NCBI RefSeq assembly: GCF_040054535.1
Contig: NC_090780.1
Coordinates: 1,420,001-1,484,000 of the forward strand
Direction of reading: 5' to 3'
Origin: Antennarius striatus
Lineage: Eukaryota > Chordata > Actinopteri > Lophiiformes > Antennariidae
DNA length: 64,000 bases
Shown: positions 16,717-64,000 of the stretch, piece after piece
Layout: every line of letters begins with the position of its first letter
Position numbering within the stretch: the first letter of the stretch is position 1
Program-made: the position numbers and the translations under genes
The notes under the pieces: generated by a model
Told to the model about the DNA's origin: nothing
The model's input: only the letters and a program-made list of their open reading frames with translations
Database searches by the model: none

Positions 16717-19416
16717 TTAACCCAGGCTTATTTTGACCTTACGTGCTCCGATTGGTCGATCGTTAAGGTCCATAACGGCAGCAGTTGCTTCCTCGGGGTT
16801 CTGGAAGGCCACCATGGCCTCACCAGTTGGCAAGCCTTTCTCACTGAACTGCAGACAAACTGAGCCTGGCACCACCTGGTAGCCGTAAAAGAAGTCCATG
16901 ATCTCGTCAACAGTGACAGTGAATGGCATATTCTGAAGCCTCACAATAGTTGGACCAGCAGCACCTCGTTGACTGCTGGGATTAGTAGATCCTCCAGGGA
17001 CCGGCTGGCCACGAAGACCGTCAGCTCCTGCTGTGAATACCTGCTGTCCAACAGCCCCACCACTTGCACGTCCTGGGTTGCTGTTGTCGTTGTTAGCCCC
17101 TGCCCCTCGGTTTTGTCCTCCTCCAGCTCCCTTTCTGTTGGCATTTTCAAAGGGGGCCAACCCTCTAAGTCCATCATGGCTGAATGGAGCCCCTCCAGTA
17201 GCTCCAGGTCGAAAGCCAGGTGGCTCCAAAATTGGTGCTCCGGGAAGGCCAGCAACAAGTGGAGGAGCCACGCCCATATTCACATCTGCCAGTCCTGCTG
17301 CTAGGGGAGGGAGAGGAGGAGGTCCTGCCAGACCATTTCCTGGAGTTGAAAATGGTGTCACAAAAGGGGCACTACCGAGGTTTCCCATAGTATTTCTGAG
17401 AAAGCTGAATTCCTCACCACTAATTCCAGCAAATGGATTGATTTGGGATTGCTGGGAACTGGGCTGGGTCTGCAGGTGCTGATTCTGAGTGTGGCTCAAC
17501 TGGTTCTGGTTCTGGCTGCGTTGGCCCCTCTTGTTCTGGGGGGGAGGATTCCTCTCGATTTCCTTCATCTGCTCAAACGTTACAAGGTGGACAAAGGCAT
17601 CGCGACCATTGAGTTTTTGTCGGTGGAGTCTTTCGGCTTTACGGCCATCTTCCTCAGTTCGCAACTGGAAAACAGCTTGGCCTAAACCATTGCCGTTACT
17701 ATCTGTCAGAACCTTCAGGGTATCCTCGTAAAGGCCCACACCTTCCAGGAAGGCACGGACATCCTTCTTGGAGATATTGTAAGGGATGTTGGAGATATGT
17801 GCACAGTTCCTGGGAGCTTTTAAGCCATCGTGGTTCTTGCCTTCACCGTGTACAGCTTCACGTTTTCGGATGGTGTCAATCTTTTCAAGCATTCCCTTCT
17901 GGCTGATTGGGTGGACCTGGATGAAGCGAGTGCCCATGTACTGCATATGTGCACCCAGGGCAGTCTTATAGTCCTGTTCTGTTTTGAACTCAAGAAAGCC
18001 TTCCCCTGTGGCTCGCCCATTGGGCCCATAAGCTATGTAAATGCTGTCCTCTATTATGGCCAAGTTGTTAAAGAATTCCTTTATCTGTTTCTTGTCTGCC
18101 TCATAAGGGAGGCCTTTCAGGTACACACAAAATTCTTGCCGGTGGGGAGACCGAGACCTTCCTCGCTGATCTCTGCCTCCTGACCCAACAATACCACGAC
18201 GGCTCAGCTGGTCCTGCGACTCGCTGTTTAATTTGTTACTAATGTGGGTAGCCAGGCCGGGCCCACCGTCGTTTATGCTGGCCCATTGCCGTTCGGTACC
18301 TGGGTTGATCTCGATGAACCTCTGGCCCATCATTCCTCCCCCCCGCTTCACAGCTTCAAAGCTGTCTTGGGGTGAGAAGAACTTAACCATAGCCCTGCCA
18401 GTTGGCCGGCCCTGTCCATCCCTCAGCAGGCGAACTCCATCCACCCCAAGACCTCGAAAAAAACTCCTAATGTCCACCTCTGTGCAGGAGAATGGGAGGT
18501 TCTGTAGGAGGACAAATAGCTCATCGGGGTTGATCACTCCTGCTCCACTGGCTGCAACAGCCGCCTTCATATGGGCCTGGAGGCCAAGAGAGGCCAGGGG
18601 GGACAGAGGGTTGAAGAGCATGGGGCTGGGGGTTCCAAGCGGGAGGCCAGAGCCCAATCCTGCTGGAGGAGGTAGGGATGGGTTAAAAGGAGGCAGAGAA
18701 GATATGTGGGGGAGGTGGGACATTGGAGGCACTGGAGGGCCTTGGGAGAGTTGGGAAACTGTAGGGACAGGAGGGAGGGAGGACACTGGGGGAGGAACTG
18801 GAATGGTGGGCAGCGTGGGCATGGGAGGCATGGAAGGCATATTTGGAAGTGGAGGGATGGGTGGAGGTCCTGTACCAAGTGCTGCCAGAGCTGTAGTGAT
18901 AGTGGGGGCGGAGCTGTAGCTATTGGGGAAGCTGGGCACTACGCTGGCCACTGCTTTGTTACTTGCTGGCTCCTGAGATGAGCTTGCTGCTGTCACTGAG
19001 ACCTGGTTGATATTGAAACCCTGGTTTCCATGACTACCGGATCTGCCCCCTGCCCCAGGTTGCACTGTGGGTATGGGGGTGGCCACTTGTCGGTTGGCAT
19101 TTCCTGCTGTAGCTGCTGCTGTCTCCACAGTGCCTGACCCGGCCTCAAACCTGCGGCGACTAAGTTCAATCATATTCTGCATTTCAGTCTTGCTGCTAAG
19201 CAACAGTGACACTTTGGAGCCCTTAATGGACCCACCTGTACGCATCATCCCCAGTCGAGCATCTTCATCAGTGGCAAAGACGATGAAGGCCTCGCCATGT
19301 TCACCCCCAACGATGTGCACTCCCCCGTCAGGGATGGTGAGGCCAGAGAAGAAGTGTCTGATGTCCATGGTGCCGGCTACTATGGGAAGACCCTGCAGCC
19401 TGATGACTACCGCCAT
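16717..19416 (-). CDS. rbm12: RNA-binding protein 12 (SWAN), single-exon ORF
   Basis: A continuous 899-codon ORF; human RBM12 has about 930 residues and is likewise encoded in one exon. RRM/RRM-like domains lie at about residues 3-75, 299-375, 427-505, 537-612 and 821-899. Visible RNP-like cores include RAMVKFF, GEGFLEF and GEAMVAF. A proline-rich segment at about 183-270 (PPIPPLPNMP, PPVPPMSHLP) and a second Pro/Gly-rich linker after RRM4 are hallmarks of this family and distinguish it from RBM12B. It is a nuclear RNA-binding protein whose molecular role is not well defined. An acceptor at 19445 lies 28 nt before the ATG, so the 5' UTR is spliced. The 3' UTR probably runs to the minus-strand AATAAA at about 15715. 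Plus-strand ORFs across this exon, including one of 228 codons, are shadows of its biased codons. Confidence 0.97.
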   Translation of the reverse strand: MAVVIRLQGLPIVAGTMDIRHFFSGLTIPDGGVHIVGGEHGEAFIVFATDEDARLGMMRTGGSIKGSKVSLLLSSKTEMQNMIELSRRRFEAGSGTVETAAATAGNANRQVATPIPTVQPGAGGRSGSHGNQGFNINQVSVTAASSSQEPASNKAVASVVPSFPNSYSSAPTITTALAALGTGPPPIPPLPNMPSMPPMPTLPTIPVPPPVSSLPPVPTVSQLSQGPPVPPMSHLPHISSLPPFNPSLPPPAGLGSGLPLGTPSPMLFNPLSPLASLGLQAHMKAAVAASGAGVINPDELFVLLQNLPFSCTEVDIRSFFRGLGVDGVRLLRDGQGRPTGRAMVKFFSPQDSFEAVKRGGGMMGQRFIEINPGTERQWASINDGGPGLATHISNKLNSESQDQLSRRGIVGSGGRDQRGRSRSPHRQEFCVYLKGLPYEADKKQIKEFFNNLAIIEDSIYIAYGPNGRATGEGFLEFKTEQDYKTALGAHMQYMGTRFIQVHPISQKGMLEKIDTIRKREAVHGEGKNHDGLKAPRNCAHISNIPYNISKKDVRAFLEGVGLYEDTLKVLTDSNGNGLGQAVFQLRTEEDGRKAERLHRQKLNGRDAFVHLVTFEQMKEIERNPPPQNKRGQRSQNQNQLSHTQNQHLQTQPSSQQSQINPFAGISGEEFSFLRNTMGNLGSAPFVTPFSTPGNGLAGPPPLPPLAAGLADVNMGVAPPLVAGLPGAPILEPPGFRPGATGGAPFSHDGLRGLAPFENANRKGAGGGQNRGAGANNDNSNPGRASGGAVGQQVFTAGADGLRGQPVPGGSTNPSSQRGAAGPTIVRLQNMPFTVTVDEIMDFFYGYQVVPGSVCLQFSEKGLPTGEAMVAFQNPEEATAAVMDLNDRPIGARKVKISLG

Positions 19417-19444
19417 ATTGACTGCTAAACAACAGCTCTATAAC
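19417..19444 (-). other. rbm12: rbm12 5' UTR part of the coding exon, with the end of a uORF
   Basis: The acceptor 'ttctccccag' ends at 19445, leaving 28 nt of 5' UTR before the ATG. If joined to the donor at 24791, an upstream ATG in exon 1 (within 'gaaaATGgtgtctg') stays open for nine codons and stops at the TAG at 19425-19427. That is 8 nt before the main start. Confidence 0.55.
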
Positions 19445-36346: not shown

Positions 36347-38961
36347 AGATAAGATAAAGATAAGATAAAAGACCTTTATTGTCCCACAGTGGGGAAATTT
36401 GTGCGATCGTGGCAGCGGGGGGGGGGGTCAAACATAAATAGTTAAATAATATACATACATATTAACATCTGCAACATATGAAATTTACATATTCACATAT
36501 TGGAAACATATTAACATATATCATATTATCCGAATGTACATTATATTTACACACCAAAAAAAAGAAGAATATACACTACAGGCTGGTTTTTACACTGCTC
36601 ATCCGGAGTTAGAACGTTGTGTTCTTTGAGTTTGGTGAGTTGTTGTAGTTCCCTGAGTTCTTTGAGTGGTCTGCTGGGAGGACGGCTGGTTGTACAGTCT
36701 GACAGCCGTGGGCAGGAAGGACCTGCGATAGCGTTCCCTCACGCATCTCGGGTGAAGCAACCTATCGCTGAAGGAGCTCTCCAGTGATGTCAGTGTGCCC
36801 TGTAGAGGGTGGGAGTGGTTCTTCATCATTGATGACAGCTTGTTTGTCATCCTCCTCTCCACCACCACCCCCACTGAGTCCAGGGAGCATCCTAGGACAG
36901 AACCCGCCTTCTTAATCAGCCTGTCCAGTCTCTTCCTGTCGGCCGCAGTGATGCTGCTGCCCCAGCAGACCACCCCATGAAAAATAGCTGAGGCTACAAC
37001 CGTGTCATAAAAGGTCTTTAGGAGTGACCCCCGCACTCCAAAAGACCTCAGCCTCCTGAGCAGATAGAGTCTGCTCTGACCCTTTTTATAAAGTGAGTGA
37101 CTGTTGGTGCTCCAGTCCAGTTTATTGTTGAGGTGAACACCCAGGTACTTGTACGAGGACACCACCTCAATGTCCGTACCCTGGATCTTCACCGGTGTAA
37201 CCGGGCAGCGTGATCGCCTGCGGAAATCCACCACCAGCTCCTTGGTTTTACCCGCGTTGATCTGGAGGCGGTTCCGCTGGCACCAGTCCACAAAGTCCTG
37301 GGTCAGTTCTCTGTACTCTCTATCGTCCCCATCGGTGATGAGGCCGACGATTGCAGAGTCGTCAGAGAACTTCTGCAGGTGACATGTGGGGGAGTTGTAG
37401 GAAAAGTCTGCAGTATACAGGGTGAACAGGAACGGAGCCAGAACCGTTCCCTGAGGTGCCCCTGTGCTGCAGACAACTGTGTTCGACACACAGTCCCGGG
37501 TCCTCACGAACTGCAGACGATTGGTCAAATAGTCCAATATCCAGTCCGTAAGGTGGTGGTCCAGCCCAGTGATCTCCAGTTTGTCCCTCAACAGTGCTGG
37601 TTGTATCGTATTGAAAGCACTGGAGAAATCAAAAAACAAGATTCTCACAGTGCTCCCAGGCCTCTCCAAGTGGGACAGTGCTCGGTCTAGGAGGAAAATG
37701 ACGGCGTCATCCACCCCGATGGCAGGCTGGTAAGCAAACTGGAGTGGGTCCAGTGATGGGCTCACCAGGGGGCGGAGATGACAGAGGACCAAACGCTCCA
37801 GGGTCTTCATCAGGTGAGACGTTAGTGCCACCGGCCTGTAACTGTTTAGGTCCTTGGGATGCGGGATCTTGGGCACGGGAACCAAGCAGGACGTTTTCCA
37901 CAGCTGTGGAACCCTTCCCAGCTTCAGGCTCATGTTGAACATGTGTCCAACAATCCCACACAGCTGGTCTGCGCAGGATTTCAGGAGCCTGGAGCTGATG
38001 CCGTCTGGACCCGCAGCCTTCCTCGTCTTGATCCTCCGGAGCTGGTTTCTCACCTGGGACTCAGTGAGGGACAGGGTGGAGCAGGGGGACTGTGTGCTGG
38101 GGGGTGTGGGTGAGGGGGGTGGGTTGAAGAGGTGAACTGTAGGGGGTGGTTGTAATATGACCTGAGCAGTCGGGGGTGGCCGTGAGCTGATCGTTGTAGA
38201 GGGGGAGGGGGAGGAGCTGTGGTGGTGTTGGAGAGGGGCAGGGGCAGGGGGGCGTGGATGCCTGATCGAATCTATTGAAAAATTTGTTTAGGTCATCTGC
38301 CCACTTCTGGTCCCCAGTGACCTGGCGGTCGGGTCCTTTATGGCCTGAGATGGTCTTCAGGCCCCTCCACACCTCGCTGACGTTATTCTGCTGCAGCTGG
38401 TCCTCCATCTTCCTCCTGTACATGTTCTTCCCCTCTCTGATTTTCCTCCTCAGCTCCCTCTGGACAGCCTTCAGCTCGTCCTTGTTTCCAGACTTAAAGG
38501 CCCTTTTCTTCTCCTTAAGAAGGACCTTAATGTCCGGGGTGATCCAGGGTTTGTTGTTGGGATAACACCGTACGGTCCTGGTGGGTACGGTGTTATCCAC
38601 ACAGAAGTTAATGTAATCTGTGACGGTGTTTGTGAGACCGTCAATGTCCTCCCCATGAGAGTCACAGAATAAATCCCACTCTGTTCTGTGGAAACAGTCC
38701 TTCAAAGCATCTTCTGCCTCGTCGGACCATCTCCTCACAGTGCGGGACACAGCTGGTTGCCTTTCCACAAGAGGCTTGTAGACGGGCAGGAGATGAACCA
38801 GGTTGTGGTCTGCTCTTCCCAGGGGGGGGAGGGGTGATGATACGTATGCCTCCTTGGTGTTGGCATAGCACAGGTCCAGTATTTTACTGTCTCTGGTGAA
38901 ACAAGTAACATACTGGGTGAAGGTGGGCAGAGTGGAGGACGGGGGGGCGTGATTAAAGTCC
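36347..38961 (-). mobile_element. 5'-truncated Rex1/L2-type LINE with RT
   Basis: The minus-strand element starts inside the endonuclease domain at the DFNHA motif (about 38955-38940). The endonuclease C-terminus follows (LGRADHNLVHLLPVY), then a linker and the reverse transcriptase (36599-38053, 484 codons). The RT shows KAAGPDGI, LNSYRPVALTS, FFDFSSAFNTI, GAPQGTVLAP, and FSDDSAIVG in place of the FADD box. The linker (to about 38061) and RT are in different frames, implying one indel in the Pro-rich stretch at about 38060-38250. The 3' UTR ends 'ggacaataaaggtcttttatc' plus a (TTATC)-like tail at the left. The candidate 7-bp target duplication CAGTGTT is at 36340-36346 and 38962-38968. The family is inferred from motifs (CR1/jockey group); Rex1 versus L2 is not settled. 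Confidence 0.85.
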
Positions 38962-40748: not shown

Positions 40749-43422
40749 TCATGGTTTTCCTGCCAGCAGTGGAGACGACTCGGAGGCTTCAGGATCCCCG
40801 TGACGCGGCGCTGCAGCTTCGTTGTGTGGACAGTCGTACAGGTGGCTGCTCGCCAGATCCGTTTCCACTCGCAAGTTGATTTTCTTCATGCAAATACAAA
40901 CCAGGAACACAAAGTTACACACGAATACACACATGTATTCATGAATACAGGATCTCCGCACTATAAGGCGCACTGGACTATAAGGCGCACCCTCAATAAT
41001 TTGTTTGTTTTATCATTTATTTCACATATAAGGTACACCGGATTATAAGGCGCACACAATATAAAATAAAATGTATTTGATAAACTGCAGCAGCTGTAGT
41101 TACGCAATCCGTCCACTATATGGAGCCGCGCTGCTCAGACAGTCATGATTGCGTTCATGACTTCCTGACTACCTTTGAATGGCCCCTATTGTTCTGTCAA
41201 TAATCCATTCTGAGCCTCATCAAGGAAACCTGATCACTTGATCACTTTACCATCTTAGAAAGAAGTCAACACGCATACTAAAAAACCTGACATTAGAAAC
41301 TGGTTAAATTCATTACGAGTGCAGTCAGTGCCAACAGAGCGGATTATTTCATGATCTGGAGTTCGAAGCAGATATTTAAGCTCCGATGTTCGTCTTCGTT
41401 TATTAATTAAATATTGTTTCGATCGACCCTCCGCCGCCCCCCCCAGATCTATCAACTACATTTGTAAATCAATAAAGCACACCAGACACCTTTGTCCAGC
41501 AGTGACTGCTCTTTATATTTCAGAAAAGGCTGTAAGTTCATCTCTGAGGGTCTTTATTCACCTTTAGTCCAGTTTCTCCGTGTGTTTCCACAGACTAATA
41601 GAATGGACCGTCACTAGATTCCAGATGACAGCACAATGGGGTTTTTAGACCAATTCAGTTTAAAGTGGGTTATTTCTGACGCCAAATAGTTAGAAATACT
41701 GAGATCAGTCAGTCAGTCAGACTTTATTCATAGAATTGTTGAAAGTTCCTCATGTTTTTCTACGTAACCACCGGTGCTCCTACAGTCTGCTCTACCGTCT
41801 GACAGCAGCTCAGTCAGAGCCGGGACTTCGGTGACGCCCCTTGACTACCGTTGTTAGGGGGCGTGGGCCCGTGTGCCTTGTGAGGGGGCCCCCTGGTGGC
41901 GGAGTGCGGCACGACTGGTGGCCAGACTGCAGGCTTTTTTTCAGCGATCATGTTTTTAACCAATATTAATATGAATATTAATCCATATATAAGACGCACC
42001 GGATTATAAGGCGCACTACGGGATTATGAGAAAATTTTAGGCTTTTAGGTGCGCCTTATAGTGCGGAAAATACGGTACACACAAGTATTCATGTTCTATC
42101 AGTGCTCCAGACAAGAACCTGACCAGTGTGAGAGCAGCACGGTACCTGAAAGTCTCTGATGTAGGTGAGGAAGAAGCTGATGAAGGACAGGGCCAGGGAC
42201 CATTCAGACACGGTGCTGATGATGTGAGCAGTGTAGCCCTGAAACACACAAACACCCCCAAGTTGGAACCATGAAGAATAACCTAAAACAGAAACACGTT
42301 CAGCTAAACCCCCGTTAACGACAGTAACGGTTCCAGGAGACGTGAGGTGAATTAAGTCGTTAAACTATAGATAACTATAACATAAACAAATATTATTGTT
42401 GTTAATATTTGGTTAATATGAATCTATCTAAAGCTGACAATTAAATTATATTTTTTAATTTAGTATAGAAAAGAAAAAAAACCTGTCGACATCTCGTCTT
42501 CAGCTGTTTCTTCCTCATCGTGGGTCACGGGGGTTGCTACGGGCTAATAATATGATGTTAATGTTTTATTCTGATGAACTGTTCAGTAACACGATATTAT
42601 GTGTTTTCATGGTTTACTAGTGATTTAATGATTCTGATATTTGTGTCTGCAGGCGTTACGTTGGAGTAAAATGACGTAAACTTGATTTTTTTTTTCCTGC
42701 TGAACGCCGTGACTCCAGACGCCGTGACTCCAGATGCCGTGACTCGTGGTGAAGCTGCTTCTATGTTTTTGAGTCGGTAGAGCTTGACGGTTTATTTGTG
42801 CTCTAGAGCAGAAGAACGGGGACTGACCGTCTCCCCAGGAGTCCAGTGCAGCTTTTGGGCCACGTCCACCCCCGGCAGGCTGCTGTACATCACGACTGAG
42901 GATATGAACACTGACAGGACTCGGTTAAGGTTCGCTTGTGTCCGATGGTGATCTGAGTAACCCAGAGGACACGCCCCCCGTCCCCGTCTACTTCCTGCTG
43001 TAGCTTCATTAAAGGATGCTGCTGACGGCGCTGCAGAGCGTCCAGACCGCGACGCAGAGGCGGACCCGGTAGGCGGTCCTGCTGTGGACGTGAGGCTGCA
43101 TGTAGAAAGACACCAGCGTCTGGACCAGGATGTAGAGGAACCCCACCCCAAAGGTCAGCACCGCCCCCACCAGGTGCAAGGAGAACAGCGTGGTCTTCTG
43201 CTCAGACACACACACACACACACGTGTTCACTGTGACACATTTAACACACACACTGATCCTGGACCAGCAGCACTCACCTGGAAGTTGGCGACGACACAC
43301 ATCCCAAAGGAGCTGACCACGCCCAGCATCAGCCCCGACAGGTTGAGTCTGTGGAGGCGGAGCTTAGGCTCCACCATCAGAGCCTCCACCTGTTTGTAAC
43401 GCACGTACGTGGTAGCCATACC

Positions 43423-43455
<33 letters not shown>

Positions 43456-43805
43456 AGATTTTTTAACTGCATAAACTGTATTAATTACGATATTTTGTTG
43501 TCAGTGTGTGTGAGAGTGTGTGTGTTTTACCTAAAAAGGCTGATACATCCAGCATGATCCCGAACACACACCTCTCTGGTGCCATCGTTCCTGTGTCGCT
43601 GCAACACACAACACAACCATCATCAGTTCTCACCTGTGTGTGTGTGTGTGTGTGGTGTGTGTGTGTGCTCAGACCTGATGTAAGGCACCAGAGGGTCCAC
43701 GTGCCTCAGCACCACCGCTGTGATGTAAGCGAACACGAAGGACGCCGTCGTCCAGATGACCAGCGACACCGGCAGGAAGCACAGCCCCCGCTGGAACCAC
43801 CACAT
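40749..43805 (-). CDS. dram2: DNA damage-regulated autophagy modulator 2 (7 coding exons)
   Basis: Coding exons in transcript order: 43805-43675, 43598-43531, 43421-43279, 43197-43020, 42910-42828, 42238-42146, 40883-40749. The total is 276 aa; human DRAM2 has 266. It is a multi-pass lysosomal/endosomal membrane protein that promotes autophagy. It starts [18 protein letters not shown] (TM1), with [13 protein letters not shown] in the first lumenal loop and YVRYKQV after TM2. VANFQ|KTTLF marks an exon junction, QKLHW a lumenal loop, and SEWSLALSF...FLTYIRDFQ the last TM. The tail ends SSPLLAGKP, resembling the DRAM2 tail rather than DRAM1. Exon 4 has no usable GT donor in frame. Ending it at 43020 before GC gives a split Met codon that aligns with the mammalian residue, so a GC-AG intron is inferred. 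A 5' UTR acceptor lies at 43820. Confidence 0.93.
40945..42076 (-). mobile_element. DNA transposon remnant with CCGCACTATAAGGCGCAC termini
   Basis: The left end, 'ctccgcactataaggcgcac', and right end, 'gtgcgccttatagtgcgga' plus 'aaatacggta', are inverted repeats of a widespread vertebrate family. Further subterminal 'ggattataaggcgcac' repeats are present at both sides. On the minus strand at 41255-41455 there is a transposase remnant ([24 protein letters not shown]). It occupies most of the last dram2 intron (40884-42145). Class assignment (pogo-like) is an inference. Confidence 0.7.
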
Positions 43806-43896
43806 GGTGTGTGTGTGTCCTGCAAACGACACACACATGGAGCTTTATAACCACACACACAGCTTTATAACAACACACAGTGACACACACATAGCT

Positions 43897-47123: not shown

Positions 47124-50100
47124 TCAGTGAGCAGCTGAGCTGAGCGCTGAGTGAGGCTTGATTTTAAAAACACAGATGTGCAGATGGCAGGCGATCTGGT
47201 GGCACACGCTGACCGAGTACCGCAGCAGGTCGACGACAGAAAGGATCTGATGGAGAGACAGAAGGGAGAGTCTCTCAGACAAACAGGAAACACTGGCAGG
47301 AAGGTCTCCTGATTGGTTAAAGGTCGAGGGGGTTAAAGCGGCGACTTACCAATGCGATCCACAGCACCAGGTACTCGTCAATAAAACTATTGAAGTACTG
47401 ATCCAGGAACAGCAGGCCTGGTCCCAGGAAGGCTAAATCATGGAGGTGCATCTCGCTTTTTGTCATGTGGGCGACCTGCAGACGCACAAACAAGATCCAC
47501 ACAAAAAAGTTTAGGTTCAGTTCAGTTTAGGTTCAGGTTCAGTTAACTTTAGGTTAGTTCAGTTCAGTTTATTTCAGTTTAGATTTAGTTTAGGTTAGTT
47601 CAGTCTTGGTCAGTTTAGGTTCAGTTAAATTTAGGTTTAGTTTAGGTTTAATTTAGATTTAGTTCAGTTCAGTTTAGTTTAGTTTAGTTTAGTTCAGCGT
47701 TGATGACTTCCTGAAGGAGCACAGGAATGACTTTAACGACCTTCTACTTGCCGGCTGCCATCCCAACTAGTTCCTTACAAACAGCTGTTGTCATGGTGAC
47801 AAAATGCAGACGATTGAGAATAAATGTGATTAAAAACAAAATCTACAGTACTGGGAATAACCTGGATGAGAATAAACCGCTGGAGCTGGAGAACGCCAGC
47901 AGCTGATCGTGTTGTCAAACGTTCCACGACCTTCATGGACTCTGACTTACCACTAATTTATTGGTGATCTTGGCGGAGACAAAGCCAAATGCCAGGATGT
48001 AGAGACACGGATGCTTCTCGAAGAGCTGGACTGCTGACTTCTTGTAGATCATCATGGCTAAAATGATGACTGACCCAATATGTAAGACTGGAGAGAGGAC
48101 GCTGGTTCCCTGTGGACACAAACAACACGCTAGGAGGATGTGTGTGGTATATGGGATATGTCTCTACTGATCAACACACACACACATTTATGATATTTGT
48201 TGTTTTTCCATAATTTATGGGTTAAATGATTTCAGGAGAGGAGGGTCTGCAGACTTACCGCTATTGTAGATCCGTTCTTGCCAACTCCTCCTGTAAATAT
48301 AACTCTGAAATAATTGGTGCAGGAAAATACGGCTCCTAAAAAAGTGCAGATGGCAGGGACAATTTTCATCTGGATATTTAGGATGGGAATCTAGGAGTGG
48401 AGACCAGAAGACAGGGAATGTAAGCAGCATCATAAAAAACAAGCATTTGCAGAAAAGAGAATCAGAAGTGATCAGAATTACCAGCGACTGCCAAAAAGTA
48501 GATCCACCCACAGCGGCCAGCAAATATACGATAATGATGAAGATCTGAACCTCAGTCACGTCAATGCTGAGTGAAGAGAACGCAGAACCGTTAGACGAGC
48601 AGCAGACAGTCATCTGCGTACTGCTGCATGATGAGACGTGTTCTCCTGCATATAAACGTTGAACTTTCCAAAAAGAGACACAACAAAACACTAGAATGGA
48701 AAAATTTGTCTGATCTTGAAAAAGTCTCTTTTGAATTTAATTGTTGCGTCAAAAATGTCAACACAATGGAACAGATGACTGCACAACTCCAACTGAAGAT
48801 GGACATATTTAATCGGAGATGGAAGTCTGTTAAAAAATATCTTGGTGTCAATTAATTCAATGTTGAAAGATGAAAATAAATTTAAAAACCTGTTACATAC
48901 AGTACAGACCAAAAGTTTGGACACACCTTCCTATTCAATGGGTTTCCTTTCTTTTCATGAGTATTTACATTGTAGATTCACACTCAAGGCATCAAAACTA
49001 TGAATTAACACATGTGGAAATATGTACTTAACAAAAAAGTGTAAAACAACTGAAAATTCGCCTTATATTGTAGTTTCTTCTAAGCAGCCACCTTTTGCTC
49101 TGATTACTGCTTTGCACACATTCTGCATTCTCTTGATGAGCTTCAAGAGGTAGTCACCTGAAATTGTTTCCACTTCACAGGTGTAATAAATGGGATTTCT
49201 TGCCTTATAAATGGGGTTGGGACCATCAGTTGTGTTGTGCAGAAGTCAGGTGGATACACAGCTGATAGTCCTACTGAATAGACTGTTAGAATTTTTATTA
49301 TGGCAAGAAAAAAGCAGCTAAGTAAAGAAAAACGAGTGGCCATCATTACTTTAAGAAATGAAGGTCAGTCAATCCGAAAAATTGGGAAAACTGTGAAAGT
49401 GTCCCCAAGTGCAGTCGCAAAAACCATCAAGCGCTACAGAGAAAGTGTCTCACATGAGGACCGCCCCAGGAAAGGAAGACCAAGAGTCACCTCTGCTGCG
49501 GAGGATGAGTTCATCCGGGTCACCAGCCTCAGAAACCGCAGGTTAACAGCAGCTCAGATTAGAGACCAGGTCAATGCCACACAGAGTTCTAGCAGCAGAC
49601 ACATCTCTAGAACAACTATTTAGAGGAGACTGTGTGAATCAGGCCTTCATGGTAGAATAGCTGCAGGGAAACCACTGCTAAGGACAGGCAACAAGCAGAA
49701 GAGACTTGTTTGAGCTGAAGAACACAAGGAATGGACATTAGACCGGTGGAAATCTGGTTTGGTCTGATGAGTCCAAATCTGAGATCTTTGGTTCCAACCA
49801 CCGTGTCTTTGTGCGACGCAGAAAAGGTGAACTGATGGACTCTACATGTCTGGTTCCCACCATGAAGCATGGAGGAGGAGGTGTGATGGTGTGGGGGTGC
49901 TTTGCTGGTGACACTGTTGGGGATTTGTTCAAAATTGAGGGCATACTGAACCAGCATGGCTACCACAGCATCTTACAGCAGCATGCTATTCCATCCGGTT
50001 TGTGTTCAGTTGGACCATCATTTATTTTTCAACAGGGCGATGACCCCAAACACACCTCCAGGTTGTGTAAGGGCTATTTGACCAAGGAGAGTGATGGGGT

Positions 50101-51176
50101 CACCGGACCTGAACCCAATCGAGATGGTTTGGGGTGAGCTGGACTGCAGAGTGAAGGCAAAAGGGCCAACAGGTGCTAAGCATCTCTGGGAACTCCTTCA
50201 GGACTGTTGGAAGACCATTTCCAGTGACTAACTCTTGAAGCTCATCAAGAGAATGCCAAGAGTGGGTGAAGCAGAAATCAGAGCAAAAGGTGGCTACTTT
50301 AAAGAACCTAGAATATAAGACATATTTTCAGTTGTTTCACACTTTTTTGTTAAGTACATAATTCCACATGTGTTAATTCATAGTTTTGATGCCTTCAGTG
50401 TGAATCTACAATTTTAATAGTCATGAAAATAAAGAAAACTCTTTGAATGAGAAGGTGCGTCCAAACTTTTGGTCTGTACTGTATGTGACCTTGTCCTGGG
50501 GAAGGGAATAAAAGGGGTCCATAGTCTAATGTCTGGGAATATTTTGTGTTTCGAATTTTATTTAATTAAATTTTTTATTTACTTAATTATTTTTTTCGTT
50601 GTTTTTGTCCTTGTGTATGTTTCTGTTTAAATAAACATAAAGTTAAAAAAAATGTTGGAACGGCCTCTAAAAGACAGGAAACCTGGAGAAGTTTGAATCA
50701 AGGTTGCCTAGCAACAGCTTGAAAACTTAGAGATGAATATTCATCAACAAACTATAACTTCCTGTTCTGAAAAACAGGCAGAAAACGGGAAGCCCGTTGA
50801 CTCACATGCCGAAGCGCAGCGTTCCCGACACGTAGGTCTGCCAGTGGGCGCAGTAGAACATGAACATCCCAGCGAAGCAGCAGAAGAACATCCAGTCCGG
50901 GTTGGTCCCCATCTGCACCGCGATGGTGGTCCCCAACACCACAAACACTGCAGAGAGAAGCACGTGAACGAACCGGAGGACGCTCTCAGTCGGACAGGAA
51001 GGAGGTGGGGGGGGGCACTGACCGGTGGACAGGGAGTCACAGCCGTGGTCAAACAGCTCCCCCAGTGGAGAGCAGCTGTTGGTGCGTCTGGCCTGCTTCC
51101 CATCGATGGCGTCCAGAGACTGGTAGACAAACAAGCCTGCAGCGGACAGCAGGTACGCCCAGAGGGGGGCCTATAA

Positions 51177-51247
<71 letters not shown>

Positions 51248-51847
51248 GGCAGACGTGTGTTAACGTCAGTTTCAACTCTAAACTCTGGATTCAAAGGATG
51301 CGTTTTCGTATATTGTTTTGAAGTTAGTACAACCGGTGTGAACGACCACCAACCTGTTCCGTGGCCGTTGGGCAGTAGTACACGAGCACGAGCGTGGTGA
51401 GGAAATTGGTCGCCAGGCCGATGATGGTGATCAGATTGGGGGCGATCCAGGAAGGGACTTGAGCTACCAACCACTCCCAGTAACGCTGCATCATGGGCTC
51501 CAGCAGGGAGCGTCCGGCGCTGCTGTACCTGCACACGTGAGTCATGTGATGGAGATGCGAGTCATGTGATGCAGATGCGAGTCATGTGATGCAGATGCGA
51601 GTCATGTGATGCAGATGCGAGTCATGTGAATCGCTGCGCCTGAACCACCTCACCTGTGCTCCTCCAGCCTCTTCAGCTGGTGTCGAGACAGGGGCGGCGA
51701 GGGCAGCTCGATCAGCCGGCGCAGCACCCCGGGGGCCATCCAGCAGCCCTCCTCCATGGCCCCCCCCTGTCCAAGGTCCTTGTCCTGGTCGAGGCCCAGG
51801 CGAGAGCGCAGGCCCCCCCCACGCTGCTGCTGCTCGCTGGTGCTCAT
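47124..51847 (-). CDS. cept1: Choline/ethanolamine phosphotransferase 1 (9 coding exons)
   Basis: Coding exons in transcript order: 51847-51654, 51528-51354, 51170-51023, 50947-50806, 48566-48482, 48390-48259, 48109-47951, 47475-47350, 47246-47124. The total is 427 aa; human CEPT1 has 416. This ER/nuclear-envelope enzyme transfers phosphocholine or phosphoethanolamine from the CDP form to diacylglycerol, the last step of the Kennedy pathway. The CDP-alcohol phosphotransferase motif DGx2ARx8Gx3Dx3D is intact at residues 146-168 (DGKQARR...[10 protein letters not shown]). Other anchors are [62 protein letters not shown] and [15 protein letters not shown]. The start is the first ATG downstream of an in-frame TGA within the exon that begins at 51951. 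CEPT1 rather than CHPT1 is chosen by sequence and the dram2 neighbour. A Tc1 copy lies in the 50805-48567 intron. Confidence 0.95.
47515..47700. repeat. Degenerate 'ttagtttaggttcag' repeat in cept1 intron
   Basis: About 185 bp of irregular TTTAGGTT/CAGTT units lie in the intron between the last-but-two and last-but-one coding exons. Confidence 0.8.
48900..50481 (+). mobile_element. Tc1 transposon, complete ends, dead transposase
   Basis: The terminal repeat starts CAGTACAGACCAAAAGTTTG at 48900, with its inverse ending at 50481. TA lies at 48898-48899 and 50482-50483. The length of 1582 bp is normal for fish Tc1. The plus-strand transposase starts at 49300 ([12 protein letters not shown]) with paired HTH domains over 107 codons to a stop at 49621. 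Reading continues with [30 protein letters not shown] and DDPKHTS, broken by stops at about 49711 and 49765 and a frame loss near 50100. It is therefore inactive. It lies inside the cept1 intron, antisense to the host gene. Confidence 0.92.
51178..51244. repeat. (CA)n microsatellite before a cept1 acceptor
   Basis: About 33 CA units. On the coding strand this is a (TG)n run ending 12 nt before the exon that begins at 51170. Confidence 0.95.
51539..51630. repeat. 20-bp minisatellite filling cept1 intron 2
   Basis: About 4.5 copies of 'gagtcatgtgatgcagatgc' with a strict 20-bp period. The host intron is only 125 bp (51529-51653), so roughly three quarters of it is tandem repeat. Confidence 0.92.
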
Positions 51848-52700: not shown

Positions 52701-53581
52701 CGATGTGTTCAGGAGGAATTTAACCCTCGGGCTGGTCTGACAGGCAGTGAGCCTGAGACGACGGAGGCTCTTTACAGACCCACGGTACTGTCTACTCCAG
52801 CTGTCAGAACCTAGAACTAATGAAACGTTTCTTACTTCTCAATAAAAGAAAGAAATAAAAAAAGAAAAAGTCCAAATCCAGTTTATAAATGTTTGAAGAA
52901 CACATGGACGAAACGATGCTGGTAAAATGTTCTTTATTCTCTCAGCCAGTGGCAAAAGAGAAGGTACTGATGAGCTCTGGGAATAAGTACTGGAAACTCC
53001 CAGATTCAGTAAACAAACAAATGATTAAAAGTAAGCTCAAACTATCAGAGGAGATTTGCTTTATGTAAATTTTAGATGCTTTACTGTGTGACAGCAAGGT
53101 GAATGTTATATTTAGAACCTCCAGTACGTCAAGAGGTACTCAGCCTGACTTCAGCAAATTAACCCAAATTAATATTTAAATTACAGAATTAGTGACGAAA
53201 AAAAAGTTTGCACCTTCATCTGGTTCCCGTTTTGCACATGCCCCGGTGACATGGTAACCCAGATGCTAATATGACAATGTGATAATACATGAAAGTGTTA
53301 GAGGAGCAGATCTTTGTTCTTCATTCATGGCAAATATATTTGAGTTTTTTTAGTGTTGCTGTTTTTAAAATGAAAAACTTTGATCACCTGAAACTTTATT
53401 CTTTAACCCTTCCATGAAGAATCTGACCATAGATCAAGACAGAGGAGAGTTTCTACTCTTGGGGTATGTTTTGCAGCTGACAGGAAGTGTTGGAATGCTA
53501 GATGTCGTTGTGCTTGAAGTTTTCTTTATTGTTTCATGGACACATTATCTTTACAGCGGTTGTTCATGCATCAGTGTGACG

Positions 53582-54397
53582 TCACGGCTCTATGTCGTCC
53601 AGCTGGTCCAGGTAGGATTTAAAGAAGTCCCTCAGGAGCTGCTGCACCTGGTTGGGCTCTGAGCTGCCAGCGGGGTAGCCTGGACCTGGATTCAGAGCCT
53701 GCTTCCAGATCTTTGTCGGCTTGAAATCAGCCGATCGGGTCTTGGCAGTGTGGAGACCCTCAATGGCGCCGGACAACCAGATCAGTCTCCTGAGACTCTG
53801 GATGTTTTTACCGCGGTCGTGCAAGAGCTGATGTTCAGTCACGGCTCGGCGACTGTGGGGAGGAGGAGCATATTAGTCAGTCCAAGTCTCACCCGAGTAC
53901 AGCCCCAGTACAGCCCCAGTACAGCCCCAGTACAGCCCCAGTACAGCCCCAGTACAGCCCCAGTACAGCCCCAGTACAGCCCCAGTACAGCCCCAGTACA
54001 GCCCCAGTACAGCCCCAGTACAGCCCCAGTACAATGTAGAGTCAATGTGGAGTTTAAAGCGGGACACGGAACCCAACCTGCTGCTTATAGAGAATGTGCA
54101 TCTCTTATCTACATATTTAGGTTTTCAAGAGTAATAAATTTGAACGTAAGTCTCGTAAGAAGCTGAAATCCAAACATATTTAGATCTCATTGGTCAGAAA
54201 TATCTAGTTTAGTTTGAGCCGTGTGGAAAGTGTCAGCAGACAGGAAGTGAGCGTCAAACGCAGACGAGACTCATCCTACTCGTAGGACCATCCTTTAGCG
54301 GGATCTCTCACCTCTCATTCTGTTGACAACGGCTGCTCGTAACGACGACAAGAAGCATGACAGCGAGGACTCGTAGAGGTCTGTGGAACCACTGCAT
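53582..54397 (-). CDS. pth4: PTH/PTHrP-family prepro-hormone, probably teleost Pth4
   Basis: Two coding exons, 54397-54312 and 53852-53582, join to give 118 aa. Residues 1 to about 24 are a signal peptide (Arg-containing start, then VLAVMLLVVV, cleavage near SSRC). A dibasic SRR at 29-31 precedes the predicted mature start AVTEHQLLHDRGKNIQ. The first 34 mature residues match the PTH1R-binding region of PTHrP/PTH (human PTHrP starts AVSEHQLLHDKGKSIQ) through IEGLHTA. The C-terminal part (residues about 66-118) has no polybasic nuclear-localisation run like that of PTHrP, and the precursor is short. This and my recollection of fish Pth4 favour pth4 over pthlha/b. The split between a signal/pro exon and a mature-hormone exon at a Ser codon is typical of the family. 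It acts as a secreted ligand of class B receptors in calcium/phosphate and skeletal control. The family call is strong; the orthologue name is tentative. Confidence 0.85.
53895..54033. repeat. 11-bp minisatellite in the hormone gene intron
   Basis: About 12 identical copies of 'cagccccagta' lie in the 459-bp intron, starting about 40 bp from the acceptor of the mature-hormone exon. Long minus-strand ORFs here (repeats of GLYWGCTGAV) are repeat translations. Confidence 0.93.
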
Positions 54398-54925
54398 CGT
54401 CTGGAGCACCGGCCCCAAGGAATCATGGGAAAGATAAACGGACAGGAAGCATCAGAAGACCTCAGGACTCCTCTTAGAATTTGTTTTTTCAGCCCCTCGT
54501 TGCAGGACCAGTAGTTGTGATCACTTTATGTTTAAATAAAGTTTTGGCAAGGAATGGATGAAATTACAAAGACATTTAAAAAATTGTTTTAAATAAAAGT
54601 AAAATAAATCTAAAATAAAATCTAAAATAAATAAATATATCGAAGCGCTAAATGACGCTAGCTTCTGTCCTACGACAAATACAGAACCCACTTTGGTGGG
54701 TCTGTCCTTCAGTTTTGACATTTTTAGTTCGCATTAGTCTGATAAAACAAAATATATTTTTTTTGTTGGGTAATTCTGAATTTTTTAAAATGACAGCCAT
54801 CGCATTTATTTTACATTTGTCTGTTCAGAAGAGAATAATGAACCACATTCACACATTAATGCTATCAAAAAGCTGGAGAGTCACAACAAAACAAGCCGAG
54901 ATTAAATTCAGAGAAAACGACACAG

Positions 54926-54966
54926 TGAAGATGAAGATGAAGATGAAGATGAAGATGAAGATGACG
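54926..54966. repeat. (GATGAA)n short tandem repeat
   Basis: 'aagatgaagatgaagatg...' of about 40 bp lies in the putative first intron of the hormone gene. Confidence 0.85.
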
Positions 54967-54984
54967 ATGCGTCCAGGTGCTTAC

Positions 54985-55075
54985 ATTCTGCCTGTTGGTG
55001 AAAGCCCCTCCTCTGATGCTCAGACGCTGAACACTGACAGACACTGACTTCAGGTCGGGCAGTCAGGCCTTAAAT
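54985..55075 (-). promoter_or_regulatory. Hormone gene putative 5' UTR exon with TATA-like promoter
   Basis: The minus strand reads 'ctttatttaagg' (TATA-like, about 55062-55073). About 80 nt downstream is the donor 'cagaat|GTAAGC' at 54985/54984. The coding exon starts at 54400 after 'gtgctccag', 3 nt before the ATG. A non-coding first exon is the usual PTH-family layout. No direct evidence of transcription is available here. Confidence 0.4.
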
Positions 55076-55079
55076 AAAG

Positions 55080-55168
55080 ACACCCCCCCCCCACACGCAC
55101 ACACACGCACACACACACACGCACGCACGCACGCGCACGCACGCACGCACACACACACACACACACTG
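55080..55168. repeat. C-run plus (CA/CG)n microsatellite
   Basis: A C homopolymer, then mixed CACACG/CACGCACG units with Z-DNA-prone alternating purine-pyrimidine character. It lies just upstream of the putative TATA-like element. Confidence 0.85.
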
Positions 55169-56102
55169 TTACCGTGGGTTATTTCTGCTGATATAAGGAT
55201 GTTCACACACCTGGAGACTCTGTAATCTGATTTTAATCTGGTTTTAATCTACTGTTCCAATCCGTTCTTCTCAGAGCGACTATCTGAAAAATAATAATTT
55301 AGACAAATGGGTCCGATCGGTTCTATTGATGAGCCTAAATGAATCATTCTGGAGTCACTGGATGTGAAGCGTTGGTCCTCAGGTCAGGTGGACGTTAAAC
55401 GTTCCTCAACATTCCAGCCGCCTGGAGCCGGTCTCCAGCCACAGGACCCCCCCAGCCCCCCAGCCCCGTCACTAATGACCTGCAGCTGCTGGTCGCTGCG
55501 CTGCCACCCCTGACAACACCTCCCATGAAGAGTCTCCATCACTGAGGAATGTGGGCTCGTGGGCGGAGGAGTGAATCAGACCATTAGAGAGCCGAGTGGA
55601 GACATTCAAGGACAGACAGAGATGGTCGGACAAAGAAAGAGATGAACAGGAGGAGCAACTAATCATCTGGACAGGTCCAGGAGAACATGATTTACTGACC
55701 AGCCAAAGGACGTCTCATTTTACCTCGGGTTGGTGACTTGTTTGTTTCGTGGTTGGGAGGACAGGTTCCCCTGAAGGTTGCTGACGATCATGGATATTTA
55801 TTTTTATCAGGTTGTACCTTCTTCATCATTTCTTTATCATTCTGGTTATTGGTGTTCTTCAGATACCTTTAATTCCTGAGGGAATAGATGTATAGATGAT
55901 ATTAATGCTAAACAGACATATTTTAGGGTTTGGTTTCTAAAGATGGGTGAACCTGTGGATCTCAAGCCATCTGATTGGTTTACTTTGTAACAGATCCATG
56001 AATTTGATTGATTCTTCATACAATTTTTATTCACTTGTCAGTGTTGTATTACTTTCTTTATGACATGATTAGTATGAGATACTTATTACATCAGCAACAA
56101 AT

Positions 56103-63499: not shown

Positions 63500-64000
63500 T
63501 CACTGTAGATAAATGGTCGCTTTTAGGGGCCGTTGTTCATTCAAACAATACATGCCTTCCAAACCAGCCAAGTACGGACTCAAAATCTGGGCTTTGTGTG
63601 ATGTCCAGACCTCTTACGCGTGGAGGCTCCAGGTTTATACGGGGAGGTCTGCGTCAGCTCCGGTGGAGCGCAACCAAGGAATGCGTGTGGCACTTGAGCT
63701 CACTGAATCGCTCCAGGGCCACACGCTGACCACGGACACTTTTTTTTTACATCTTTTCCGCTGGCTGGGGGGGCTGGCTGTGCTCCCCCCGCAGCTCTTA
63801 GACAGTAAACAGCGGCAAGTGCAGTCATCGTTGTTCGGATTCACGCATGAAGACAGCGATCGTGTCATATGTCGTCCCCCCCCCCAAAAAAACAAAACAA
63901 AACAAACGTGCTTCTCCTGAGCACAAAACACCGGGAACCAGAGGTCCAGGAATCGGGGAAAACCCCCCCACAAATAATAATGGACTATAATCGCTGCAAA
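63495..64000 (+). pseudogene. piggyBac (PGBD4-like) transposase relic, cut by window end
   Basis: The plus strand reads MVAFRGRCSFKQYMPSKPAKYG, then IWALCDVQTSYAWRLQVYTG, NQGMRVALELTE and a TTDTFF-like stretch. This is the conserved catalytic-core region of piggyBac/PGBD transposases. The text then jumps to LPPQLLDSK and QSSLFGFTHED, implying an internal deletion. After a frameshift it continues to MDYN-like sequence at the window edge. The upstream half is missing. It is a dead fragment. Confidence 0.75.

What the first reader, a model, noticed from the sequence alone, without database searches (positions are those of the whole stretch)
53582..55075. Compact PTH/PTHrP-family hormone gene directly upstream of cept1
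Two coding exons splice to a 118-aa precursor with a signal peptide, a dibasic site and a mature N-terminus AVTEHQLLHDRGKNIQ. A TATA-like element and a non-coding first exon can be proposed at 54985-55075. It lacks the polybasic mid-region of PTHrP, which favours the pth4 lineage reported lost in eutherian mammals. Such short hormone exons are easily missed by automated annotation, and one intron carries an 11-bp minisatellite.
Basis: partly seen in the sequence, partly recalled or inferred. Interest (0 to 1): 0.75.

Follow-up and report, generated by a model that had tools for sequence, protein, structure and literature searches.

The report
Frogfish parathyroid hormone 4 gene
This is the striated frogfish's copy of pth4, a parathyroid-hormone-family gene known from fish, frogs and birds, and it is already annotated in public databases, so the find is correct but ordinary.

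Summary
On the minus strand, exons 54397-54312 and 53852-53582 splice (GT-AG, 459-base intron) to a 118-residue precursor with a hydrophobic N-terminus, an SRR site and a PTH-family core (Pfam PF01279 E 4e-12). The protein is identical (118 of 118) to a public record, "parathyroid hormone 4 [Antennarius striatus]". Residues 1-34 share 26-31 of 34 with 118 listed Pth4-type relatives, at most 15 with 120 listed Pthlh-type rows and at most 13 with 16 Pth1 rows. The intron lies before SRR, the published mark of teleost pth-l. cept1 follows on the same strand. The idea that the gene is easily missed does not hold here: it was annotated. The non-coding first exon is unproven, and two looser tree tests do not exclude other placements.

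Minor extra: L8, K13, R19 and G26 each occur in at most 5 of 118 relatives, so this Pth4 lacks the "MHD" motif said to mark all PTH-L. Its mature region is among the most diverged of 13 species compared, while its Pthlhb is ordinary.

The parts
54312..54397 (-). coding exon A: ATG, signal-peptide-like region, up to the split Ser codon (AG|T)
   Evidence: 118-aa product identical to P0001
53853..54311 (-). phase-2 intron, GT-AG, 459 nt, directly before the SRR site
   Evidence: position matches the published teleost pth-l rule (passage)
53892..54033 (.). 11-bp minisatellite, 12.9 copies, in the intron; 39 nt lie between it and exon B
   Evidence: sequence
53582..53852 (-). coding exon B: SRR, mature hormone, C-terminal tail, TGA
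53744..53845 (-). mature residues 1-34, AVTEHQLLHDRGKNIQSLRRLIWLSGAIEGLHTA, the expected receptor-binding part
   Evidence: role by homology
53525..53530 (-). AATAAA poly(A)-type signal about 50 nt past the stop
   Evidence: a motif match only
54985..55045 (-). possible non-coding first exon ending at a GTAAG donor-like string; its start is a guess
   Evidence: no transcript evidence
55070..55077 (-). TATA-like TTATTTAA
   Evidence: a motif match only
48218..51847 (-). part of cept1 (first coding exon to the IDVTEVQIF exon), next recognised gene downstream of pth4 on the same strand
   Evidence: exon pieces joined by eye match CEPT1 structure 8gyw_B at 2.9e-122 against 2.5e-99 for CHPT1 9uet_A; CDP-OH_P_transf 2.1e-7 for 50805-51170

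Best explanation
It is the pth4 (PTH-L) gene of the striated frogfish. Shown here: gene structure, identity to the annotated record, family, and neighbour cept1. Inferred from homologues: the precursor enters the secretory pathway, is cut after SRR, and its first 34 or so residues bind and activate class B PTH receptors. In zebrafish, Pth4 made by hypothalamic neurons acts on bone mineral and phosphate balance (PMC5640766, passages); the same role here is inferred.
For: 118 of 118 residues identical to parathyroid hormone 4 of Antennarius striatus; genome size 548.38 Mb against 548.56 Mb for the published frogfish assembly; Pfam Parathyroid 4e-12; window in the Pth4 group 99/94; core identity 26-31 of 34 to 118 Pth4-type rows; intron before SRR; two coding exons as reported for PTH-L of Xenopus and chicken; low K/R tail (maximum 4 in 12 residues, inside the 1-5 of 116 Pth4-type rows and below the 5-9 of 120 Pthlh-type rows); a separate Pthlh of the same species exists (P0124; L001).
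Against: The frogfish peptide has LHD at positions 8-10, whereas a review says that all PTH-L peptides investigated have MHD; but 5 of 118 other listed rows also have L8. Its branch is long (0.37), and AU tests do not reject a place outside the other Pth4 rows (p 0.382) or together with all Pthlh rows (p 0.293). No expression evidence was available.
Confidence: 0.97

Rival explanations
1. It is a diverged PTHrP gene (pthlha or pthlhb) that lost its polybasic tail.
For: The best solved-structure matches are PTHrP chains (3ffd_P 1.1e-7), and L8, K13 and R19 are shared with the PTHrP chain printed. The AU test does not reject a tree with the window and all Pthlh rows on one side (p 0.293).
Against: At most 15 of 34 core residues shared with any of 120 listed Pthlh-type fish rows, against 26-31 with Pth4-type rows. 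Grouping with pthlhb alone is rejected (p 0.001). The genome has a pthlh locus elsewhere whose protein is 100% identical to P0124 over 129 residues.
Confidence: 0.02
2. It is a decaying pth4 copy (pseudogene) in the frogfish lineage.
For: Long end branch (0.37 against a median of 0.065) and the lowest median core identity of 13 species compared.
Against: Intact frame, splice sites, signal-peptide-like region and AATAAA. The four core changes against the commonest Pth4 residues are L8, K13, R19 and G26, and each also occurs in other listed rows.
Confidence: 0.03

Closest known systems
Teleost Pth4 / PTH-L (e.g. Morone saxatilis P0002, 70% identity; Takifugu PTH-L CAG26462.1 is named in PMC3009671)
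   Same: precursor length (118 in P0002), SRR site, core residues, short tail of low K/R content; two coding exons and intron before SRR by the published descriptions
   Different: L8 in place of M, K13, R19 and G26 in the core, and K35 seen in none of 118 rows; a more diverged mature region than most of 13 species compared
Fish Pthlha/Pthlhb (PTHrP)
   Same: PTH-family N-terminal region, basic processing site before the mature peptide
   Different: at most 15 of 34 core residues shared; Pthlh-type rows have strongly basic tails
Fish Pth1a and pth1-like
   Same: family and small precursor
   Different: at most 13 of 34 core residues shared with 16 rows

Membership tests
PTH family (PF01279) | match to the Pfam Parathyroid profile above its cut-off | tested here: met
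   47.2 bits against 22, residues 30-74
teleost pth4 (PTH-L) | groups with Pth4 rather than Pthlh or Pth1 | tested here: met
   99/94 in a 77-row tree and core identities; AU tests of two looser alternatives do not reject them (p 0.293; p 0.382)
teleost pth4 (PTH-L) | intron directly before the SRR motif, no KR site | tested here: met
   Ser codon of SRR split by the intron; QQNE-SRR-AVTEH, no KR before it; rule from a passage of PMC4354418
teleost pth4 (PTH-L) | MHD at mature residues 8-10 (stated for all PTH-L investigated, PMC4354418 of 2015) | tested here: not met
   LHD here; M8 in 113 and L8 in 5 of 118 other listed rows, so the motif is common but not a strict requirement
teleost pth4 (PTH-L) | activates PTH receptors; hypothalamic expression | not testable with these tools
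   needs peptide and tissue assays
pthlh (PTHrP) | polybasic C-terminal region | tested here: not met
   maximum 4 K/R in any 12 residues against 5-9 in 120 listed Pthlh-type rows

The most novel reading that the evidence does not exclude
In the frogfish lineage Pth4 evolved faster than Pthlhb, dropped the MHD motif and took three residues found in tetrapod-type PTHrP (L8, K13, R19). A single family search saw only one pthlh locus in the genome, so Pth4 might have partly taken over a PTHrP-like receptor role after a loss of pthlha.
Probability: 0.05. Interest if true: 0.35.

Novelty: already known. Interest (0 to 1): 0.12.

Why it matters
It matters little as a discovery, because the gene is annotated in this species and in many other teleosts (names). 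It is a sound example of a two-exon hormone gene read correctly from raw DNA, and it adds a case in which the MHD motif of PTH-L is not kept.

Tried and rejected
The bacterial promoter scan of 54900-55200 does not apply to a vertebrate promoter and was not used. Conserved cept1-pth4 linkage in other fish could not be tested: no other fish genome was reachable with these tools. A synteny argument for a human chromosome was dropped: the window also holds rbm12, and two quick marker-family searches put their hits on C2 (PF05405) and on C4, C1, C22 and, 11.6 Mb from the window, C5 (PF02234). Papers: 30 hold at least two of pth4, parathyroid hormone and cept1; the 20 listed show no cept1, as do the 20 listed of 1,526; pth4 with frogfish gave 0 papers. 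One search translated the wrong frame, and one search printed the stop coordinate and length one off through a slicing slip; one search has the correct values. A pthlha query against the own genome did not complete.

Full report
Observation. The minus-strand gene is as described. Coding exon A is 54397-54312, the intron 54311-53853 (GT-AG, 459 nt) and exon B 53852-53582 ending in TGA; the joined frame gives MQWFHRPLRVLAVMLLVVVTSSRCQQNE-SRR-AVTEHQLLHDRGKNIQSLRRLIWLSGAIEGLHTAKTR... of 118 residues. The hydrophobic stretch, the SRR site, AATAAA at 53530-53525 and the 11-bp intron minisatellite (12.9 copies) are present. The TATA-like string (55077-55070) and a GTAAG donor-like string at 54984 are present, but the non-coding exon built on them remains a proposal.

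Identity. Pfam assigns the Parathyroid family at 4e-12. The closest protein in the large database is 118/118 identical and named parathyroid hormone 4 [Antennarius striatus], on a sequence of 26,659,741 bases; next is Morone saxatilis pth4 at 70%. That search found 171 proteins at E <= 0.001, of which 120 were listed and used here. The window's own genome has 548,383,777 bases; the published striated frogfish assembly is 548.56 Mb (PMC11192929, passages). So the gene is known and annotated.

Which paralogue. Of 34 core residues the window shares 26-31 with 118 Pth4-type rows (the 120 listed less P0001 itself and the truncated P0117; most bear fish names, some are unnamed), 4-15 with the 120 listed Pthlh-type rows (208 found) and 5-13 with all 16 Pth1 rows. 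A 77-row tree (window, 29 Pth4, 17 pthlha, 15 pthlhb, 15 Pth1, picked by me from the listings; several pthlhb rows are named only PTHrP-like in the source and the letter is mine) puts the window among the Pth4 rows at 99/94. Against this, the window's branch is long (0.37, median 0.065), only 141 columns were kept, the bootstrap had not settled, and AU tests do not reject a tree with the window beside all Pthlh rows (p 0.293) or one with the other Pth4 rows as a clade without it (p 0.382); window plus pthlhb alone is rejected (p 0.001). [quoted passage not shown] the tail has at most 4 K/R in 12 residues against 5-9 in the 120 Pthlh-type rows. PMC3009671 (passages; [quoted passage not shown]

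Other family members in the genome. PF01279 listed four places: a pthlh locus (L001, 100% to P0124 over 129 residues), pth4 (L002), a pth1a-like exon (L003, 76% to P0255) and a weak pth1-like exon (L004, under the cut-off). The tool scores only the best candidates of a loose first look, so absence of others is not proof.

Neighbourhood. cept1 is the next recognised gene downstream on the same strand; exon pieces joined by eye match the CEPT1 structure 8gyw_B better than CHPT1 (2.9e-122 against 2.5e-99). Its first ATG, read from the frame, lies near 51847, about 1.7 kb past the pth4 stop. Beyond it are Frag1/DRAM-type exons at 43.0-43.8 kb (two of three pieces over the cut-off), a reverse transcriptase at 36.6-38.3 kb and rbm12 at 16.7-19.4 kb. 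Upstream of pth4, frames of 65 residues or more in 55.5-64 kb were listed; of the four tested with Pfam one is a clear match, a DDE_Tnp_1_7 transposase at 63.5 kb, and I recognised no gene among the rest by eye.

Mechanism. By homology, a secreted precursor is cut after SRR and its N-terminal 34 residues act on PTH receptors. PMC5640766 (passages) reports that zebrafish Pth4 from hypothalamic neurons regulates bone mineral density through phosphate balance. None of this was tested for the frogfish peptide.

What is slightly unusual. Against 118 Pth4-type rows, L8 occurs in 5, K13 in 4, R19 in 3, G26 in 4 and K35 in none. L8, K13 and R19 are also the residues of the PTHrP chain printed. In 14 species for which I picked both proteins from the listings (Pth4 could be compared in 13), frogfish Pth4 had the lowest median core identity (29 of 34; the others 29.5-32) and shared the lowest mature identity (65.1%, equal to Lampris; Sphaeramia 66.2%), while its Pthlhb was ordinary (79.9%, range 75.2-85.1). 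This is a small lineage effect and may partly reflect that no other anglerfish Pth4 stood, by name, among the listed rows.

Noticed in passing
whole genome G000 (L001-L004): The PTH-family search saw one pthlh locus (matching P0124) and no second one that would be pthlha; either pthlha is lost or the first-look filter missed it. A direct pthlha query did not complete.
   Followed up: partly
53744-53845: Frogfish Pth4 has LHD where 113 of 118 listed Pth4-type rows have M8, plus other rare core residues.
   Followed up: yes
16717-19437 (-): Single open frame of 906 residues, an RNA-binding protein 12 (rbm12) gene by its matches to solved RBM12 domains (best 1.3e-46).
   Followed up: yes
36599-38287 (-): Reverse transcriptase frame (RVT_1 9.3e-26), probably a LINE.
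   Followed up: no
63513-63917 (+): Fragment with a DDE_Tnp_1_7 transposase domain (2.7e-19); piggyBac-type is my recollection of the family.
   Followed up: no
43012-43844 (-): Frag1/DRAM/Sfk1-family exon pieces, probably dram2, beyond cept1; the gene name is recalled.
   Followed up: partly
public records listed: Fish Pth4 proteins are named inconsistently: some rows carry PTHrP, parathyroid hormone or parathyroid hormone-like hormone b names (e.g. P0011, P0019, P0039).
   Followed up: no
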